DNA from: a virus
Direction: 5' to 3' (one strand)
Virus record (IMG/VR): IMGVR_UViG_3300020581_000008
Span: 33,024 to 97,023 of that record
Length of the DNA: 64,000 nucleotides
In this document: positions 1-36,910 of the stretch, in pieces
How positions within the stretch are numbered: position 1 is the stretch's first letter
Layout of the letters: each line of letters starts with the position of its first letter
Translations under genes and position numbers: made by a program
Notes under the pieces: generated by a model
The model's input: the letters and a program-made list of their open reading frames with translations, nothing else
What the model was told of the DNA's origin: nothing
Database searches by the model: none

Positions 1-260
1 TCCTGCGCTTGCGTCTTCCCCCCTGTCCACAACAGCCGCTTGCTGGACACCGCGCCATACTGCTTAACCTTGGCGCGCAGCGCGCGCCCGCACCATTGGC
101 ATTGCTCGAAACCAAACTCTGCATGCGCCGCCTCGACGGCCCACCGCGGCTCGTCGATTAGTTGCTGGAAGTCGCAGACGCAGTGTCCGCTGCGCTGTTC
201 GTGCACGGCGTTTAGAGTGCGCTGAAAGGCGCCTGCGGGCGAGTCTTGCAGTGCGATCAC
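1..260 (-). CDS. Partial zinc-finger-like protein, truncated by window start
   Basis: Reading leftward from a GTG at 260, the frame stays open to base 1 (at least 86 codons, C-terminus missing). The GTG overlaps the TGA of the upstream gene in a GTGA arrangement, which fixes the start and implies translational coupling. The visible protein has a CVC motif and a CQWC motif about 35 residues later, a likely zinc-binding site, followed by a basic stretch. No family is recognised. It is the last visible gene of the minus-strand accessory operon. Confidence 0.6.
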   Translation of the reverse strand, partial: MIALQDSPAGAFQRTLNAVHEQRSGHCVCDFQQLIDEPRWAVEAAHAEFGFEQCQWCGRALRAKVKQYGAVSSKRLLWTGGKTQAQ

Positions 261-775
261 GGCTTAAAGTGCGCGCACGTCCAGTGCTCGAAAACGACAG
301 TGCGGTCGTACTCGGACGACGGGCAGCTGCACGCGCCCCAATCTGCTCCGTGCGCTCCATCTAGGCGTATGTAGTACCGACAGCCACCGCACTGCAAGGT
401 GTAGTCAGGGTGCTCGCCGTGGCGCGGCTTGCAGTTGACTAGGTTGCCGAATGTCTCCGGCCACGCAGGATCAGAATCGCTTGGTGGCACGTTGTCAGGC
501 AGCCTTTCGCGGAGCTTTGCGATCCACCGCGCATGAACATCGTCAACAATGGCAACCGGGCCAAAAGGGAATGCGTGCTGCGCCAACGCCCACGCTAGGC
601 GTATGCCGCCGCGCGGTATTGCTTGTACCGCAGAGAACATTATGCCGCTATCGGCTACGATCTGCGCAAGTGCCGCGATGTCACTGTCCGAAAGCCAATC
701 GCAATCGATTTTCCACCTGAGCGGCCTGCGCGAGGCGGACAGAAAATCGCCGTATTGGAATATATCGCCGCTCAT
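257..775 (-). CDS. Phosphoribosyltransferase-like protein with C-terminal zinc motif
   Basis: A 172-residue protein. The middle resembles a type I phosphoribosyltransferase fold, with an IPRGGIRLA segment and then PVAIVDDV, the position of the PRPP-binding loop, but the usual Thr-Thr-Gly after the acidic pair is replaced by HARW, so catalysis is doubtful. The last 50 residues contain CGGC, then WGACSCP, then a final CAH, a Cys/His layout like DUF3027-type zinc domains. The start overlaps the end of the release-factor-like gene as ATGA. The fold call is from motif memory and is an inference. Confidence 0.55.
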   Translation of the reverse strand: MSGDIFQYGDFLSASRRPLRWKIDCDWLSDSDIAALAQIVADSGIMFSAVQAIPRGGIRLAWALAQHAFPFGPVAIVDDVHARWIAKLRERLPDNVPPSDSDPAWPETFGNLVNCKPRHGEHPDYTLQCGGCRYYIRLDGAHGADWGACSCPSSEYDRTVVFEHWTCAHFKP

Positions 776-20939: not shown

Positions 20940-23900
20940 GCGCCTATACGGACTTGCTGGCCGATGCGGACGCGCAGCTTGCGCTCCTTGTGGTGGTGTC
21001 GGGGCTCAACGCGCAATCCGGCCTCGTGGAGACGTACTACTTCTGCGACCAGGGGACGGCCAATACACCCGCGAGCGGCTTCATCACGGAGCCAACCGAT
21101 ACGCCGGCCAACCAGATCTTCGAACCGCGAATCATCTCGGCGCTATCGATCGACGCGTCTGTCGCGCAAAAGGACCAGTTTGGGGGCGAGAGCTTTCCCG
21201 CCTATGGCCCGTGGCAGTTTGACAACACGGATGGCGGCAGCGCAACGCTCACGTCCCTCGTGGTTAGCGGCAATATCGCAACGGCTGCGTGTGCAAACCC
21301 GCACCCGTGGGGCAACGGCGCCCTAATCTCGATCCGCGGTGCGGCAAGCGCCGTCTACAACGTCACGCGGCAGCCCGTCACGGTGCCGGACGGCCCAGCG
21401 CCCACCACGTTTAGCTTTCCACTCGTGACGGCCAACGCCACGGTCAGCGGGCCGCTTACCGCCACAAGCGGCCTCGACAATTGGCGGACGCTTTCGTTTG
21501 ATGGGCAGTTGCTCATCGCGTACATCGTCGGCACGCGCTTTAACGGTACGGTTGTGGGTTGGGCGCAGGCAGGCGTCCCGTTTACCGGTACGGTGGCGGG
21601 TGACGCACTGGTGGACGAGCAGAAAGCCACCCTGAATGCGCGTGACCTATCGGCGTATCTTTCGCGCGACGTGCAGACCCACCTCTACCGCGGCATGTCG
21701 AATTGCCTTGCGCTGGATGGCGCCACGCAGTATGCCGTCCTGACGAGTTTCGCAAGCAGCGCCGAAAAGACGTACGAGTGCTGGTTCCGCTGCAAGGGCA
21801 ACAACGGCGCGGCCAACACCCAGACGGTTGCGTTTCAGGGGGTGCAGACCGGCGCGAATAACGAGGACTGGCACATTCAGATCGACACCGCGGGGCACGT
21901 TGGGTTTGTGGTATACAACGGGGGCGCCAGCAGCGTGGCCGTGACGGCAAGCACCGCAGACTACCGCGACGGAAAATGGCACCACGCGGCTTTGGCCATC
22001 ACGACGGCTGGCGCGCTGATGTCAGCCTATTTGGACGGCGTGCTGGTCGGCACCGCGACACCGGGTGCCTTCACGGTGCGTACCGGGAACCTCGTGGCGG
22101 GTGTCGGCACGGGTGGCAACTATTTCTACGGCGAGATCGACGAGATCCGGTTCTGGTCCGTCGCGTTGGGGCAGCTTGAGATCCAGCAAAACATGGCACG
22201 CGAGCGCGTAGCGGACAGCCGCATGCGCGGCTATTGGCGTTGTAACGACAACATCAATAACTCGCTCTTTGACGCCAGCAACAACGGGCTCACCGGCAGG
22301 CTCACGGGCAACGTTGCGAACAATATGTGGACGTGGTCGGGCGAAGGTTACCCCGACATTGCGGGCCAGCAGAAGCCCTTTGCCGTAGGGCCAATTGCAG
22401 AATTTTCCCCTACGCTCGTGGACCCCGGCAGGCTTATCTACCAGGCCCATGACGGCGCCATCCTTGGTGTCCCGTGGGTTTGGGACAAGACGGGGCCGCT
22501 CACGCCGGCTGTGAGTTGGCAGATACTAGACGCGGCGCGCGGCTTTCTCCAATTGCTCGTCGCGCCGCAAGGTAAGATCTCATGCAGCGTCCAGCCGGCT
22601 ACGAACATCTTTGGTAGTTGCCTGAGCTTTGACGGCGCTACGGGCTTTGCGAGTGCCACCTCGATGCCGTGCCCTGCCGGCAGCATGTCGCTCGAGGCAC
22701 TCGTGCGCCTGCGGGCGATGAACGCGGCAAACGTAAAGATCGCTACCTTTTCGGCAAGTGGCGGCGTTGCGGCCGGGTTGCGGCAAGTGCAGTTTATGGC
22801 TGCTGGCCTAGCGCAGTTTAGCGTCCGGAACGACGCTGGCACTGCCTATAGCGCGACAGCTGCCGTGCCGGCAACACCAGGCTTGTGGTATTGGGTGGCG
22901 GGCGTGCTGGACGTACCGAACTTGCTGTTGACTCTCTATGTCAACGGCATTTCTGTCGCCACTGCCGCTGTGACAGGCACATTCAACACCGTGCTGTCCA
23001 ACTTTTACATCGGGCGCCGCGATGATGCTGCGCAATACTTCCCTGGCGAGATCGACGAGGTACGCATCTGGAATGTTGTGCTCTCGGCCGCGACGATCAA
23101 CGCCAACATGATGCGCGAATTGGCCGGCAACGAAACAGGCCTCGTGCACTATTGGGACTTTGACGACAACGCCGGCACCACAACGGCCGATGAGGTAGCG
23201 GGTGGCGCTACCGTGACGCTTGGCGGCCCAGCGGGTGTTGCGGCCTCAAGCACCGCCATCAGTGTGTCGAGCACGGACAACAGCTACAACCGTGCGGCGG
23301 GTAGTTTCGTGGCGGACGGCTTTACGGTGGGGCAACTGGTGCAGGCTTTTGGTTTCGCCAACGGCGCCAACAACGTGCAGTCCCGGATCGTGACGGTTGC
23401 GGCTGGCAAGATCACGGTCAACGTCTTGCTCACCACCGAGGCGGCTGCCACTGGCCAGACGCTTATCACAGCGGCCGGCTGCGCATGGGCGCCGTCGCGC
23501 TATTCGCGGGCAGACCTCGCGTACTGGCTCGTGACGGCCTCGCCCAATGCGCCGCTCAAGCCGGCGCAGATCGCCCTCGCGTCTTTCGTGCAGTTCAACA
23601 TCGACGATAGCAGCGACAACGGCGAGTTGTGCGAGGCAAAGAAGGCGCGCACCTTCCTATCTGTCCTGGACGCGCTCATCAATTGGGACGGCTACTACGG
23701 CGGTACGCGCGCTGGCCTATTGCAGGTTGCATGCTTCAACCCGCCGACCGGCCTGACGTCAGCTGGCGACTTTGACGACAGCGCCATTACGGGCGATCTC
23801 GTACCAGTTGCACAGGCGCTCCCGGTCTACGGCGTACAGGTCCAATATGCCCAAAATTGGGCAGTTTCTAGCCCGCAAGATATCATCGGGATCATTCAGT

Positions 23901-31832: not shown

Positions 31833-31946
31833 TTCGTCTGCTCCTCCCGTCTACATTTGCGGCCGGACTTGGCAACCGGCCCCGTGGTTTACGGCGGCCG
31901 AAGCCGCCGGCCTCGCCTCAAGCGTTCCTCTCCATCGGCCCCGAGC

Positions 31947-32189
31947 CTAAACGCACCTGGCGGTATCGCAATTTTTCAGCGAGCAGCCGTTCGTGCAGTC
32001 CGTGATGCAGGTTAGCCCCTGCGTGCACTGACAACTGATCGTGCAGCCGGCCCCCGTTCTGCAGTCTCCAGTCGCCGGGGGCTCCGACTGATCGCCGCAA
32101 CCGCCACGGGCCACTCTCAGAAGCGCCGTCCGATCCAACGCCCGGATGGTTTCCTTGTTGAGGCTGAGCCGCCTTCGGTTCTTCTTCAT
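31947..32189 (-). CDS. Class I lanthipeptide-like precursor peptide
   Basis: An 80-residue peptide. The leader, residues 1-30, reads KKNRRRLSLNKETIRALD and ends in VARGG, the leader signature (LSLNKETIR, hydrophobic helix, double glycine) of a class I lanthipeptide precursor family. The 50-residue core contains 10 Cys and 11 Ser/Thr, in alternation such as GCTISCQCTQG and CITDCTNGCS, suitable for many thioether rings. A strong site (GAGGAGAAGG) lies 3 bases before the ATG. No LanB, LanC or protease gene is in the window, so modification would need host enzymes or genes outside it. Ring formation is inferred, not visible; a disulphide-rich peptide is the alternative. Confidence 0.75.
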   Translation of the reverse strand: MKKNRRRLSLNKETIRALDRTALLRVARGGCGDQSEPPATGDCRTGAGCTISCQCTQGLTCITDCTNGCSLKNCDTARCV

Positions 32190-32273
32190 GTCCTTCTCCT
32201 CTCTTGTCGATCGAGCATTTGAGCGCTCGCGGAGGCCGCCCGCAGGCGGCTACCGTCAGGGCTCAAGCCTTTT

Positions 32274-32531
32274 TCAGCGGCATGTGTGCACAGCAAGGCT
32301 CACGAGTGCCAACGTACAGCGCAACTCGTTGCCCTCAACGTACGGGACATAGACCAACTGCTCCGCATCAAGTTGCACCTCGTCAACGCCAACGTCGGGC
32401 CGCGCGCGATACACCAGCGCGCCGCATAGCCGGCAAGCAACTGGCGCATAGCCTGCGATCCGCGGCCGCGCTAACGGCATGCGCGCCCCGCGCCGCGGCG
32501 CACTGCGCGTTCCGTTCTGTTCTTGCGCCAT
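32274..32531 (-). CDS. Putative small zinc-finger protein
   Basis: An 85-residue frame with CRLCGALVY, then a later Cys and a final HTC, a possible zinc-binding set, plus a beta-like middle (EQLVYVPYVEGNELRC). The ATG at 32531 lacks a clear ribosome-binding site, and a TTG three codons upstream is possible. Coding is plausible from the Cys spacing and its fit between neighbours, but it is among the less certain calls. Confidence 0.45.
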   Translation of the reverse strand: MAQEQNGTRSAPRRGARMPLARPRIAGYAPVACRLCGALVYRARPDVGVDEVQLDAEQLVYVPYVEGNELRCTLALVSLAVHTCR

Positions 32532-32634
32532 GCGCGCCAATCGACAAGGTAAGGGCAGCTACAAAAGTTTCTGTCCACCGCGCGGCGCCGGAGCCCAGAC
32601 CAGGGGCAGCGCTGGTGCCGGTTGTCATGTCCGT

Positions 32635-32820
32635 TCACGTCGGCCTCCGCTTTGGGTCTTCCCACTTGTAGTGCGTCGCCTTGAAGGCGCGGACCCGTAT
32701 TCGGTGGGGCCGCCGCGCGTCCCGTTGATTTTCCGTCTGGCACAGTTTACCGGGCCGCGCGCCGCACTTGGGGCACGCTGTCTCGACTTCGCACTGCCAC
32801 TGGTAGCGCGGTGTCATCAT
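32635..32820 (-). CDS. Zinc-finger protein
   Basis: A 61-residue protein with CPKCGARPGKLCQTENQRD followed by RRPHRIRVRAF, the pattern C-x2-C-x-A-x-x-G-x-x-C followed by a His/Arg helix seen in many small phage zinc fingers. The start (32820, or 32817) overlaps the TGA of the PurA-like gene. It probably binds nucleic acid or a host protein. Confidence 0.7.
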   Translation of the reverse strand: MMTPRYQWQCEVETACPKCGARPGKLCQTENQRDARRPHRIRVRAFKATHYKWEDPKRRPT

Positions 32821-34091
32821 GGTGTATCCTCCACAAACTGCATAACCTCGGTTTCGCGTGCTGTCGCGGCCGTAGGTCCATGCAGCGTAAGTGCTACCGG
32901 CACGTAGCAGCTGTCCTCGATAGCCGCAATAAGGTCCTCTGCGTACGAATATTGCGGCGCGGCGTGCTCCATTACGTGGGTGCGTGAGTCTGCCTGTATA
33001 TTCGAGAGCTTGACGCGGTCGGGCAGGCGCTTTAGTCCGGCATAAAGGTAGTTGTTGGCGTAGCGCGCCGTCGGCCTTCTGTCCATGTGCGTTATGGCGA
33101 GCACATCAGGCTTGGCGGAGGCGCAGGCGTAGCGCGCCGTCACCATGTCGAAGCACCCGACGCGGAATGGCCCCATCCAGTGGTGCAGGCTGTTGTGCTG
33201 CTCGGGCACTCGTTGTGCTAGCGCGGCGTATTCTGTAGGAAACGGCCCGGGGCCGTGGCGCGTAGCGTAGCTGCGCAGGACGCCGATATGTAGCCGGTCG
33301 GTGCAGCCAACCTCATTGAGCAGTGTGTCTGCATTGTGAAACGTAGCGTCTGTCCAACTGTTGTAAGGCGCAAAGCCGTGTACCGCATCGATGAGCAAGC
33401 CCTGTGCGCCCTCAAAGACGACGGCGTCCGCTTTGGCGAGCACGTTGTTTGTGGTGCGTAGCTCCATTTCCCCGAGCGCGTCCTGGTAATTAGCAACGAT
33501 CTCGGCCGGTACGATCTTTTGCGCCTCGCGGTATTGTTGGTTTGCAGTGCCGAGCGGCCGTAATTGAGACAACGTCAGTGCGCGGATGAATGTCAGTAAT
33601 GCTTCGCCCGCTGCCGCAGCGTCAGCGCGGCCCACAACGTCGCCCACACGCAGGGCCAGATCCTGCGATGCACTTACCAGCGCCTCGCCCACACCGAGCC
33701 CTACGCTGCCGTGCCGCGCGGCACCGCGCTCTATCTCGCGTGCCTGACACAGCAGCCGGTGCCAAGGCGTCACGATCACGCACCGCGGATCTATCGAGAT
33801 GCGCGGGCGCAGCCCCTTGCAGGTGAGCACTTGGCGCTCGACGTCGAGAGCCAGCGGATCGACGATCATAAAGCGCGATAGGTGGGTAGCGGCGCCAGCG
33901 AGCGTGCCGGCGCCGAATTGGCTAAAGCCGTGCGTGGTGCCGGTTTCGGCGTCCACGACGTGGTGCAACGCTTGCGGGCCGCCGTTGTAGCGCACCACAA
34001 TGTCGGCCTTGTGCTTGCGCACCAGGAAGTCGGTCAGGCAACCTTTCCCCTCATCGCCGTATCCCAAGCCCGCAACGCAATAAGCTCTCAT
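32817..34091 (-). CDS. Adenylosuccinate synthetase paralogue (PurA-like)
   Basis: A 424-residue protein. The N-terminal GTP loop is GYGDEGKG (residues about 9-16), keeping the catalytic Asp. VVRYNGGPQALHHVV stands where PurA has GGHNAGHT; the His is kept. FEGAQGLLIDAVHG and GPGPFPTE are also PurA-like, while the arginine-rich loop and the guanine-specifying motif are altered (THMDRR in place of TKLD). PurA joins aspartate to IMP using GTP. Phage PurZ uses dGMP to make 2-aminoadenine DNA, but the retained Asp and the GGPQA loop resemble uncharacterised bacterial paralogues more than PurZ as I recall them. Substrate is unknown. The start at 34091 overlaps the previous gene as ATGA. Confidence 0.75.
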   Translation of the reverse strand: MRAYCVAGLGYGDEGKGCLTDFLVRKHKADIVVRYNGGPQALHHVVDAETGTTHGFSQFGAGTLAGAATHLSRFMIVDPLALDVERQVLTCKGLRPRISIDPRCVIVTPWHRLLCQAREIERGAARHGSVGLGVGEALVSASQDLALRVGDVVGRADAAAAGEALLTFIRALTLSQLRPLGTANQQYREAQKIVPAEIVANYQDALGEMELRTTNNVLAKADAVVFEGAQGLLIDAVHGFAPYNSWTDATFHNADTLLNEVGCTDRLHIGVLRSYATRHGPGPFPTEYAALAQRVPEQHNSLHHWMGPFRVGCFDMVTARYACASAKPDVLAITHMDRRPTARYANNYLYAGLKRLPDRVKLSNIQADSRTHVMEHAAPQYSYAEDLIAAIEDSCYVPVALTLHGPTAATARETEVMQFVEDTP

Positions 34092-34261
34092 GAGCAGCGC
34101 TCCGCCGGCTTGTGCGTGGCGCGCCACTCTGCGATGGCCTGCTGCTGCGTGAGGCCGCGCGCCGCAGCGCAGAGGAGCCAAAGGCCAGGGATTTCGTACC
34201 GTGCGCCAGCGTGCGTGCTGACGCCAACCTTGCCGTCGAAACAATTCAACTCGTAATCCAT
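34088..34261 (-). CDS. 57-residue hypothetical protein
   Basis: A short frame MDYELNCFDGKVGVSTHAG continuing to a helical LTQQQAIAEWRATHKPAE end. It is supported by its exact ATGA junction with the PurA-like gene and by filling the gap before the vWA gene. No family is recognised; translation is probably coupled to the PurA-like protein. Confidence 0.6.
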   Translation of the reverse strand: MDYELNCFDGKVGVSTHAGARYEIPGLWLLCAAARGLTQQQAIAEWRATHKPAERCS

Positions 34262-35334: not shown

Positions 35335-36318
35335 TCAATTGACTGGTATGTCCAGCCGGACGAACTGCGGTTTGCCGTATTCGGTGAGGGCCACTTCGCG
35401 CCAGCGGTCGTGGAGTTGAAACACGCTTTCTGGCCGCGCGGCCGGAGACTCTGCCGTGCACCACTCAAACAGGCCACGAAAGCGCTTGGGTATCGTATCG
35501 CCCTTGCCCGCCGCGCGGCTGGCGGCGTACCACATCGCGGCAGCCGCCATGTAGATATCGGTGGCACAGTAAGCGTCTTTCTTGAACACCTCGGGCGGGT
35601 AGTGTGCCCGCCACTTCTTAGAAACCAACGGTATGTGCCACTTGCTTGGAAAATCGACACTGCACACCCAATCCACCAGGACAAGTCCGTGGTCGTCCGG
35701 CCTGTAGAGAAGATGGTGCGGCAGCACAGCGCCGTGGATCAGGCCGTGGCTGTGGGCATAGCCGAGAATTTCTAGTAGCCGGTTCATCATCCACACCACA
35801 TGCCGAAACGGCAAGCCACCAGGAAACGCCTGCCGGATGTGCGTCAGCGGCAAGCAGCCTTGCGCCAGAGACAGCACGTTAACCGCGCGGCCAGATGCCT
35901 CAAAAGCATCGTGCACTAGCGGCAGGTAACGCTTGAAAGCGTCCGTTTTATTGTCTGCGTGCAGCGTCTTAAGAGCTGCGCGTTCTTGCGCGAGCAGCGC
36001 GTTGTCGCTAGCGGTGCGCACGATCTTGGCTACCGCCTCGGTGCCATCGAAAGCCACGAGGTAAAGATCGGAGATCGCGCCGCGCGCCAACGGCGCAGTG
36101 ACGGTCCACTTACCCAGCTTGATGGCCGGCGCGTTGCCGTTGACAAGTGCATGCATCTCGCCTAGCCGCTTAAAGGCGCGCTCGGCCCTGTCGCGCTGGG
36201 CGGCCTCGATCCTGTCCGGGTGGCAGAGTGCGGCTAACTGCTTAAAGGTGGCCGCCGCAAAGATGTCCGCCGGCACCTTGGCGCACTCGATCAGGCGCAG
36301 CGCAGCTTCGGTTGTCAC
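35335..36318 (-). CDS. J-domain/protein pseudokinase fusion
   Basis: A 327-residue protein. Residues 1-60 resemble a J domain with FKQLAALCHPD (HPD at 33-35). A protein-kinase-like domain follows: glycine loop LARGAISDLYLV (77-88), Lys98, Glu112 of helix C, then HGAVLPHHLL (195-204) where kinases have HRDLKPEN, and DWV (216-218) in place of DFG. The catalytic Asp (Ala197), the Lys and the Asn are all replaced, so it is probably a pseudokinase that binds nucleotide. It pairs with the vWA gene downstream. GTG start at 36318 overlaps nothing upstream but shares GTGA with the gene before. Confidence 0.75.
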   Translation of the reverse strand: MTTEAALRLIECAKVPADIFAAATFKQLAALCHPDRIEAAQRDRAERAFKRLGEMHALVNGNAPAIKLGKWTVTAPLARGAISDLYLVAFDGTEAVAKIVRTASDNALLAQERAALKTLHADNKTDAFKRYLPLVHDAFEASGRAVNVLSLAQGCLPLTHIRQAFPGGLPFRHVVWMMNRLLEILGYAHSHGLIHGAVLPHHLLYRPDDHGLVLVDWVCSVDFPSKWHIPLVSKKWRAHYPPEVFKKDAYCATDIYMAAAAMWYAASRAAGKGDTIPKRFRGLFEWCTAESPAARPESVFQLHDRWREVALTEYGKPQFVRLDIPVN

Positions 36319-36626
36319 AGCGCTGGCCTCTCGGAAAGCTGGCGCCCGCGCGATGCGCGCACGTAAGCGCGGTGCCAGAAAGCCTCTGCCGGCGTGCGCC
36401 CGTCATCGTATTCACGGCGCCACGCGTCTGCCTTCCACTGGTCAGCTTCATGCTGCTTGACACCGCCTTTTGATACGGCATAGGCACGCAGCTCATCAAA
36501 CCAAGGCGGGAATGCCGCGAGGCTCCTACGGCGCAGCAGCAGCCACCCCGCAAGCGCACCGAACGCGCCGCATCCGAAGGAGTAAAGGCCAATCGAGACG
36601 GCCGGGAGCCACCATAAACCGTCCAT
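36315..36626 (-). CDS. Membrane-anchored hypothetical protein
   Basis: A 103-residue protein. The ATG at 36626 has GGGGGAG upstream. An N-terminal hydrophobic segment (GLYSFGCGAFGALAGWLLL) is followed by a soluble helical tail with WKADAWRREYDDG and TPAEAFWHRAYV. It is predicted to be inner-membrane anchored with the tail in the cytoplasm. Its end overlaps the GTG of the kinase-like gene, suggesting the three are made together. Confidence 0.65.
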   Translation of the reverse strand: MDGLWWLPAVSIGLYSFGCGAFGALAGWLLLRRRSLAAFPPWFDELRAYAVSKGGVKQHEADQWKADAWRREYDDGRTPAEAFWHRAYVRASRGRQLSERPAL

Positions 36627-36910
36627 TAGTCTCCCCCCGCACCTTGCGCGAGCGAATGGGGGCGCAGTAACTTCGTGTCGTGTGGCGCCTCCGGCCGGCC
36701 GGAGGCGCCCCACAACTCCCACCGCGTCTCGAAACGCACGCGCTCCATCCGCAATTGAATCAACTCGTCTTCCAGTTGCGCCGACGTTTGGTTCATCGCG
36801 GGTGCTGGCGATTCCTGGCAACGGTGGATCGCTTCGATCACTGCCGCTTCGAGGTGGTCGAGCACTTCACGGTTTACCCCAACTACCGGTGCTATTTCCC
36901 CGTTGGACAT
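36626..36910 (-). CDS. Hypothetical helical protein
   Basis: A 94-residue protein, mostly helical (VLDHLEAAVIEAIHRCQ, then LEDELIQLRMERVRFETRWELW), possibly a coiled-coil dimer. It overlaps the RuvC-like gene end by 19 bases and the next start by one base. No family is recognised. Confidence 0.6.
   Translation of the reverse strand: MSNGEIAPVVGVNREVLDHLEAAVIEAIHRCQESPAPAMNQTSAQLEDELIQLRMERVRFETRWELWGASGRPEAPHDTKLLRPHSLAQGAGGD

What the first reader, a model, noticed from the sequence alone, without database searches (positions are those of the whole stretch)
31947..32189. Orphan lanthipeptide-like precursor in a phage genome
Seen: leader with LSLNKETIR and a double-glycine end, then a 50-residue core with 10 Cys and 11 Ser/Thr. 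Known: this leader type belongs to class I lanthipeptides modified by LanB/LanC. Inference: the phage may borrow host modification enzymes to make a peptide that kills competitors, acts on the host envelope, or jams a host RiPP system. No modification genes are in the window.
Basis: partly seen in the sequence, partly recalled or inferred. Interest (0 to 1): 0.85.

Follow-up and report, generated by a model that had tools for sequence, protein, structure and literature searches.

The report
Two lanthipeptide-like precursors in one phage
An environmental bacterial virus carries two small genes that look like raw material for lanthipeptides (ring-shaped bacterial peptides often used as weapons) but no enzymes to finish them, so it probably relies on, or interferes with, its host's peptide-making machinery.

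Summary
Window 31947-32189 (minus strand) encodes an 80-aa peptide: a 30-aa LSLNKETIR leader ending in Gly-Gly, then a 50-aa core with 10 Cys and 11 Ser/Thr. The leader hits NCBIfam's class I lanthipeptide leader model at 21.7 bits (cut-off 22). A leader model I built from 12 cellular precursors ranks it first of 5,812 viral ORFs. Second is an unreported peptide in the same 97-kb phage record, outside the window (contig 22128-22334), with the same leader type, Gly-Gly and 6 Cys. All nine genomes found to carry such leaders also encode LanB and LanC; LanB occurs in only 6 of 294 sampled genomes of one phylum. Half of those cellular precursor loci lie away from LanB, so modification in trans is plausible. 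The phage has no LanB, LanC, C39 exporter or tyrosine integrase. Most likely these are phage-borne orphan precursors modified in trans by the host. Whether the product acts, or the leader is a decoy against host lanthipeptide (possibly anti-phage) machinery, is undecided. A type-P5 twister ribozyme sits between this gene and the next. Host, expression and modification are untested. Phage-borne lanthipeptide clusters are known; I found no report of enzyme-less precursors.

The parts
31947..32189 (-). P0001, 80-aa lanthipeptide-type precursor gene (ATG at 32189, stop at 31949-31947)
32100..32189 (-). Leader, 30 aa, MKKNRRRLSLNKETIRALDRTALLRVARGG; fits the LxLxKx5L class I leader motif and ends in GG
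31950..32099 (-). Core, 50 aa, 10 Cys and 11 Ser/Thr
32190..32203 (-). Ribosome-binding site GAGAGGAGAAGGAC; AGGAG 6 nt before the ATG
   Evidence: sequence shown
31863..31917 (-). Type-P5 twister self-cleaving ribozyme (RF02684, 39.0 bits, gathering score 37.6), in the 114-nt gap between precursor and Band_7 gene; predicted cut between U31891 and A31890
30804..31832 (-). Next gene downstream, same strand: Band_7/SPFH protein, phage lipoprotein family phrog_200
32383..32628 (-). 81-aa ORF upstream, same strand; scanned with others, no family seen for it
32635..32820 (-). 61-aa phage zinc-finger protein (Phage_zn_bind_8)
32817..34244 (-). PurZ/PurA-like adenylosuccinate synthetase of phage type (phrog_1211), flanking phage gene

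Best explanation
The gene is one of two orphan class I lanthipeptide-type precursor genes carried by a tailed phage. During infection the leader (LxLxKx5L, ending GG) would be recognised by a LanB dehydratase and LanC cyclase of the host. Ser/Thr of the core would be dehydrated and joined to Cys as thioether rings, and a host C39-type exporter/peptidase could cut after GG. The ringed peptide would then act for the phage, most simply inside the infected cell or at its envelope (host takeover or exclusion of other phages). Shown: the two genes, their leader family, the absence of enzymes in the phage record, and the link of this leader family to LanB/LanC in cells, including precursors far from their enzymes. 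Inferred: that the host has LanB/LanC, that modification occurs, and the final action.
For: NF038153 leader hit. A leader model from 12 cellular precursors only scores P0001 26.4 bits and P0002 18.4 bits, ranks 1 and 2 of 5,812 viral ORFs; rank 3 scores 7.0; the best of 60,000 shuffled controls is 16.9. Two separate genes in one phage, 52% identical over the leader but with different Cys-rich cores. In 591 genomes of two phyla the family model gave 21 places in 9 genomes; all 9 encode LanC and LanB against 6 of 294 with LanB over cut-off in one phylum (chance P 5e-6). 7 of 14 cellular precursor loci are over 20 kb from LanB or on another contig, e.g. G001 with precursors inside three contigs and LanB/LanC on a fourth. 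The core matches cellular cores in Cys and Ser/Thr content; the G541 precursor also has 10 Cys and 11 Ser/Thr. LxLxKx5L leaders with GG and C39 peptidases are an established class I type (PMC7268733).
Against: No LanB, LanC or C39 exporter in the phage record. Host unknown; LanB-bearing hosts are rare (about 2% in the phylum sampled), so the link is not guaranteed. P0001 falls 0.3 bits below the curated cut-off, and P0002 is not found by NCBIfam at all. P0001 has one extra residue before GG compared with cellular leaders. No immunity gene was recognised. No relatives of the peptide in any other virus, so no sign of selection across phages. The record is linear and may be incomplete.
Confidence: 0.5

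Rival explanations
1. Decoy: the phage peptides compete for the host's LanB/LanC/exporter and so blunt a host lanthipeptide system, possibly an anti-phage one. The core matters little; the leader is the active part.
For: Intracellular lanthipeptides that block phage late transcription are reported in Streptomyces (review PMC12360287), and lanthipeptide clusters co-locate with defence systems (PMC12715929). No tyrosine integrase, so action within one infection is plausible; two leaders would raise the dose.
Against: Both cores keep ring-forming composition (10 Cys with 11 Ser/Thr; 6 Cys with 6 Ser/Thr), which a pure decoy does not need. No anti-phage role is known to me for this leader type in these phyla.
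Confidence: 0.2
2. Unmodified Cys-rich peptide: a disulfide- or metal-bound small phage protein that took over a precursor gene, or whose leader resemblance is not functional.
For: No modifying enzymes in the record; Cys-rich small proteins are common in phages (general knowledge).
Against: Two separate genes both carry the leader and the GG site in place; the leader would be pointless.
Confidence: 0.17
3. Precursor of another RiPP class that shares GG leaders, for example radical-SAM-modified peptides.
For: Related leaders score weakly on TIGR04149, an rSAM-modified RiPP leader model; GG leaders are shared by several RiPP classes (PMC7268733).
Against: P0001 itself does not hit TIGR04149. The leader-bearing genomes all encode LanB and LanC.
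Confidence: 0.08
4. Chance resemblance, or a chimeric contig that joined host DNA to phage DNA.
For: P0001 is below the curated cut-off; no relatives in other viruses.
Against: Shuffled and reversed controls fall far below. The gene is flanked by phage-type genes and a ribozyme type seen in other phage contigs; GC content is level across the region; a second gene lies beside the terminase gene.
Confidence: 0.05

Closest known systems
Class I lanthipeptide precursors with LxLxKx5L leaders (NCBIfam NF038153, lant_leader_L1a)
   Same: Leader motif, GG end, Cys and Ser/Thr-rich core, small gene
   Different: No lanB/lanC/lanT nearby; carried by a phage; one extra residue before GG in P0001; score 0.3 bits under cut-off
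Temperate phages carrying complete peptide clusters (SPbeta sublancin 168, PMC8270828; Dragos et al. 2021, cited in PMC10023795; class I lanthipeptide clusters in Streptomyces prophages, PMC10023795)
   Same: A phage encodes a modified-peptide precursor
   Different: Those are prophages and carry clusters (sublancin: modification, export and immunity genes); here only precursors and no tyrosine integrase
Prochlorosin-type systems with one promiscuous enzyme and many precursors (PMC10783134; scattered gene layout from my own knowledge)
   Same: Precursors away from the enzyme
   Different: Class II enzyme ProcM and Nif11 leaders, all in one cell genome
Anti-phage lanthipeptides of Streptomyces (reviewed in PMC12360287)
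   Same: Links lanthipeptide chemistry with phage infection
   Different: Host-encoded defence; here the phage carries the precursor

Membership tests
Class I lanthipeptide precursor, L1a leader (NF038153) | Leader matches curated model at or above cut-off | tested here: inconclusive
   21.7 bits against cut-off 22, E 1.7e-4; a cellular precursor in a LanB/LanC genome scores 21.0
Class I lanthipeptide precursor, L1a leader (NF038153) | LxLxKx5L motif and GG cleavage site | tested here: met
   L8-S-L10-N-K12-ETIRA-L18 and G29-G30
Class I lanthipeptide precursor, L1a leader (NF038153) | Core with Cys and Ser/Thr for ring formation | tested here: met
   10 Cys, 11 Ser/Thr in 50 residues
Class I lanthipeptide precursor, L1a leader (NF038153) | LanB and LanC encoded in the same genome | tested here: not met
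   Absent from the whole 97-kb record; only a host could supply them. So it is described as a precursor-like gene, not as a lanthipeptide cluster
Class I lanthipeptide precursor, L1a leader (NF038153) | (Methyl)lanthionine in the product | not testable with these tools
   Needs mass spectrometry
Phage-borne peptide gene cluster (sublancin type) | Modification, export and immunity genes on the phage | tested here: not met
   None recognised among the ORFs scanned
Twister ribozyme, type P5 (RF02684) | Score over gathering threshold | tested here: met
   39.0 against 37.6 bits
Twister ribozyme, type P5 (RF02684) | Conserved UAA cleavage site, intact P2, both pseudoknots | tested here: inconclusive
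   UAA present; T1 (GGC/GCC) and T2 (AC/GU) can pair by my reading of the alignment, T2 as in L066; P2 reduced to two pairs plus a C-A mismatch and L4 has one extra base (PMC5408937)

The most novel reading that the evidence does not exclude
A phage without an integrase uses two orphan precursor peptides to commandeer the host's class I lanthipeptide machinery in trans, either to make its own ringed peptides or to jam a lanthipeptide-based anti-phage defence, with a self-cleaving ribozyme separating the precursor message from the next gene.
Probability: 0.35. Interest if true: 0.88.

Novelty: new variant of a known kind. Interest (0 to 1): 0.62.

Why it matters
Lanthipeptides have been shown to act as intracellular anti-phage agents, and temperate phages can carry whole peptide clusters. 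Enzyme-less precursors on a phage would show that phages can use, or subvert, a host's peptide-modification machinery with one small gene. It gives a directly testable case: co-express the two peptides with LanB/LanC from Acidobacteria or planctomycetes and look for rings. It also warns that cluster-based mining, which looks for enzymes, will miss such genes.

Tried and rejected
Relatives of the peptide by tblastn: none in phages, viral contigs or genome contigs; plasmid hits are weak and unconvincing. Leader DNA patterns in viral contigs: none; the second pattern recovers only some of the cellular precursors, so other phage precursors could be missed. Two of four genome-contig pattern hits (L004, L007) are taken as chance: no such ORF. 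Relatives of the phage by Band_7 or PurZ-like protein: none; terminase relatives are distant, and the first four carry no leader hit. Host assignment: not achieved; tetranucleotide comparison was uninformative. Twister-P5 in 294 genomes of one phylum: none, but the control did not ring. No twister near the cellular precursors, so no link between ribozyme and peptide is claimed. Structure prediction was not run: no useful alignment depth.

Full report
What is there. The minus strand of window 31947-32189 encodes an 80-residue peptide, MKKNRRRLSLNKETIRALDRTALLRVARGG|CGDQSEPPATGDCRTGAGCTISCQCTQGLTCITDCTNGCSLKNCDTARCV. A clear ribosome-binding site (AGGAG, 6 nt before ATG) precedes it. In the 97-kb record it is the most Cys-dense of 1,005 ORFs, and the LxLNKET-type motif occurs only here.

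The record is a phage. The window is 33024-97023 of a 97,023-base linear virus record. Terminase, portal, head morphogenesis, major head protein, tape measure, minor tail, tail fibre, DnaB helicase and DNA methyltransferase genes are present. The peptide gene sits inside a minus-strand run: PurZ/PurA-like adenylosuccinate synthetase, phage zinc finger, an 81-aa ORF, the peptide, then a Band_7 protein of a phage lipoprotein family. GC content is level across the region. A chimeric contig is unlikely. No tyrosine integrase was found, in a search whose controls all rang, so lysogeny is not supported, although the record may be incomplete and serine recombinases were not searched for separately.

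The leader belongs to a real family. NCBIfam NF038153 (class I lanthipeptide leader L1a) hits at 21.7 bits, E 1.7e-4, against a cut-off of 22. PMC7268733 describes class I precursors with an LxLxKx5L leader, GG end and C39 peptidase; the phage leader fits that motif. A pattern for the leader hit an acidobacterial contig with six tandem precursors, a C39-type ABC transporter and LanC, and a Phycisphaerae contig with two precursors. Searching 591 genomes in the two phyla with NF038153 gave 21 places in nine genomes. All nine genomes encode LanC and LanB, whereas LanB over cut-off occurs in 6 of 294 genomes of the planctomycete sample; the three leader-bearing genomes of that sample all fall within those six (P about 5e-6). 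At this score level the model therefore gives almost no false positives. A cellular precursor from one of these genomes scores only 21.0 in the same scan, so 21.7 is within the range of genuine members.

A second precursor. I built a leader model from 12 cellular precursors, with no phage sequence in it, and scored 5,812 ORFs from this record and some 45 other viral loci. P0001 came first (26.4 bits, E 1.2e-6) and another ORF of the same record second (18.4 bits, E 3.7e-4); the third scored 7.0. Shuffled P0001 reached 10.3, P0001 with only the leader shuffled 16.9, shuffled P0002 11.6, and ORFs of the reversed record 5.4. The second gene, P0002, lies at contig 22128-22334, minus strand, 10.7 kb before the window and close to the terminase gene: MRKLKLHRETLRHLETGNLRCAQGG|FITLLCGGTYATCDGSVCNGFSNCICWVGSNLVPFNCDNAHHR, with 6 Cys and 6 Ser/Thr in a 43-residue core. 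The two leaders are 52% identical over 25 residues; the cores differ. NCBIfam alone does not detect P0002. Two such genes in one phage make chance a poor explanation.

No enzymes on the phage. LanC is absent. LanB is absent in a search that found LanB in nine other genomes (an earlier LanB search had no ringing control). Pfam scans of about 100 ORFs show no lanthionine synthetase, C39 peptidase or ABC exporter among the families listed.

Why modification in trans is plausible. Of 14 cellular precursor loci, 7 lie over 20 kb from LanB or on another contig. Some of that is assembly breakage, but in G001 the precursors lie inside contigs of 273, 249 and 90 kb with LanB/LanC on a fourth contig, and in G547 one precursor is 147 kb from LanB on the same contig. 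Unlinked precursors thus appear normal for this leader family, and a phage gene would be one more unlinked precursor.

What it does. Two branches remain. A product: both cores keep ring-forming composition, which argues that the core matters. A decoy: intracellular lanthipeptides that block phage transcription are known in Streptomyces (PMC12360287), so a phage peptide that occupies LanB/LanC could protect the phage. Bacteriocin production by a lysogen, as with SPbeta sublancin (PMC8270828), is less supported because no integrase and no immunity gene were seen. I put trans-modified product at 0.5 and decoy at 0.2.

The ribozyme. Rfam type-P5 twister (RF02684) matches 31863-31917, minus strand, at 39.0 bits (threshold 37.6), exactly in the 114-nt gap between the peptide stop and the Band_7 start. 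By my reading of the alignment both twister pseudoknots (described in PMC5408937) can form: T1 as GGC/GCC and T2 as AC/GU; the latter also occurs in twisters of phage contig L066. P2 is weak (two pairs and a C-A mismatch), so activity is uncertain. The same ribozyme type occurs in other phage contigs, up to four copies in one, and not near the cellular precursors. It is therefore probably a general phage RNA-processing element that here would separate the peptide message from Band_7, not a part of the lanthipeptide system.

Novelty. Phage-borne peptide clusters are known (SPbeta; Dragos et al. 2021 and Streptomyces prophage lanthipeptide clusters, via PMC10023795). I found no report of enzyme-less class I lanthipeptide precursors on a phage in the open-access library searched, and no second virus with the leader in IMG/VR by DNA pattern, a test that misses many leaders. 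I rate it a new variant of a known kind, not categorically new.

Noticed in passing
L003:2128-2334 (-), contig 22128-22334, outside the window: Second lanthipeptide-like precursor (P0002, 68 aa) in the same phage, not detected by NCBIfam
   Followed up: yes
window 31863-31917 (-): Type-P5 twister ribozyme between the precursor and the Band_7 gene
   Followed up: partly
L063 (four), L066 (three), L060, L071, L072: Type-P5 twister ribozymes in other IMG/VR phage contigs, some in several copies per contig; L060 also has a type II hammerhead
   Followed up: partly
L003:3104-4669 (-): TROVE-domain (Ro60-like) gene in the phage, upstream of the second precursor
   Followed up: no
window 32817-34244 (-): PurZ/PurA-like adenylosuccinate synthetase, nearest to mycobacteriophage I3-type proteins at about 36% identity; whether this phage makes 2-aminoadenine DNA was not tested
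   Followed up: no
window 257-775 (-) and 36315-36821 (-): Two ORFs reported 50% identical in a large alignment of unrelated proteins, possible paralogues or an alignment artefact; the first has a weak DUF3027 match
   Followed up: no
G001 (Phycisphaerae MAG): contigs C5, C6, C16 with LanB/LanC on C2: Lanthipeptide precursors scattered away from a single LanB/LanC pair, suggesting a one-enzyme, many-precursor system of class I
   Followed up: partly
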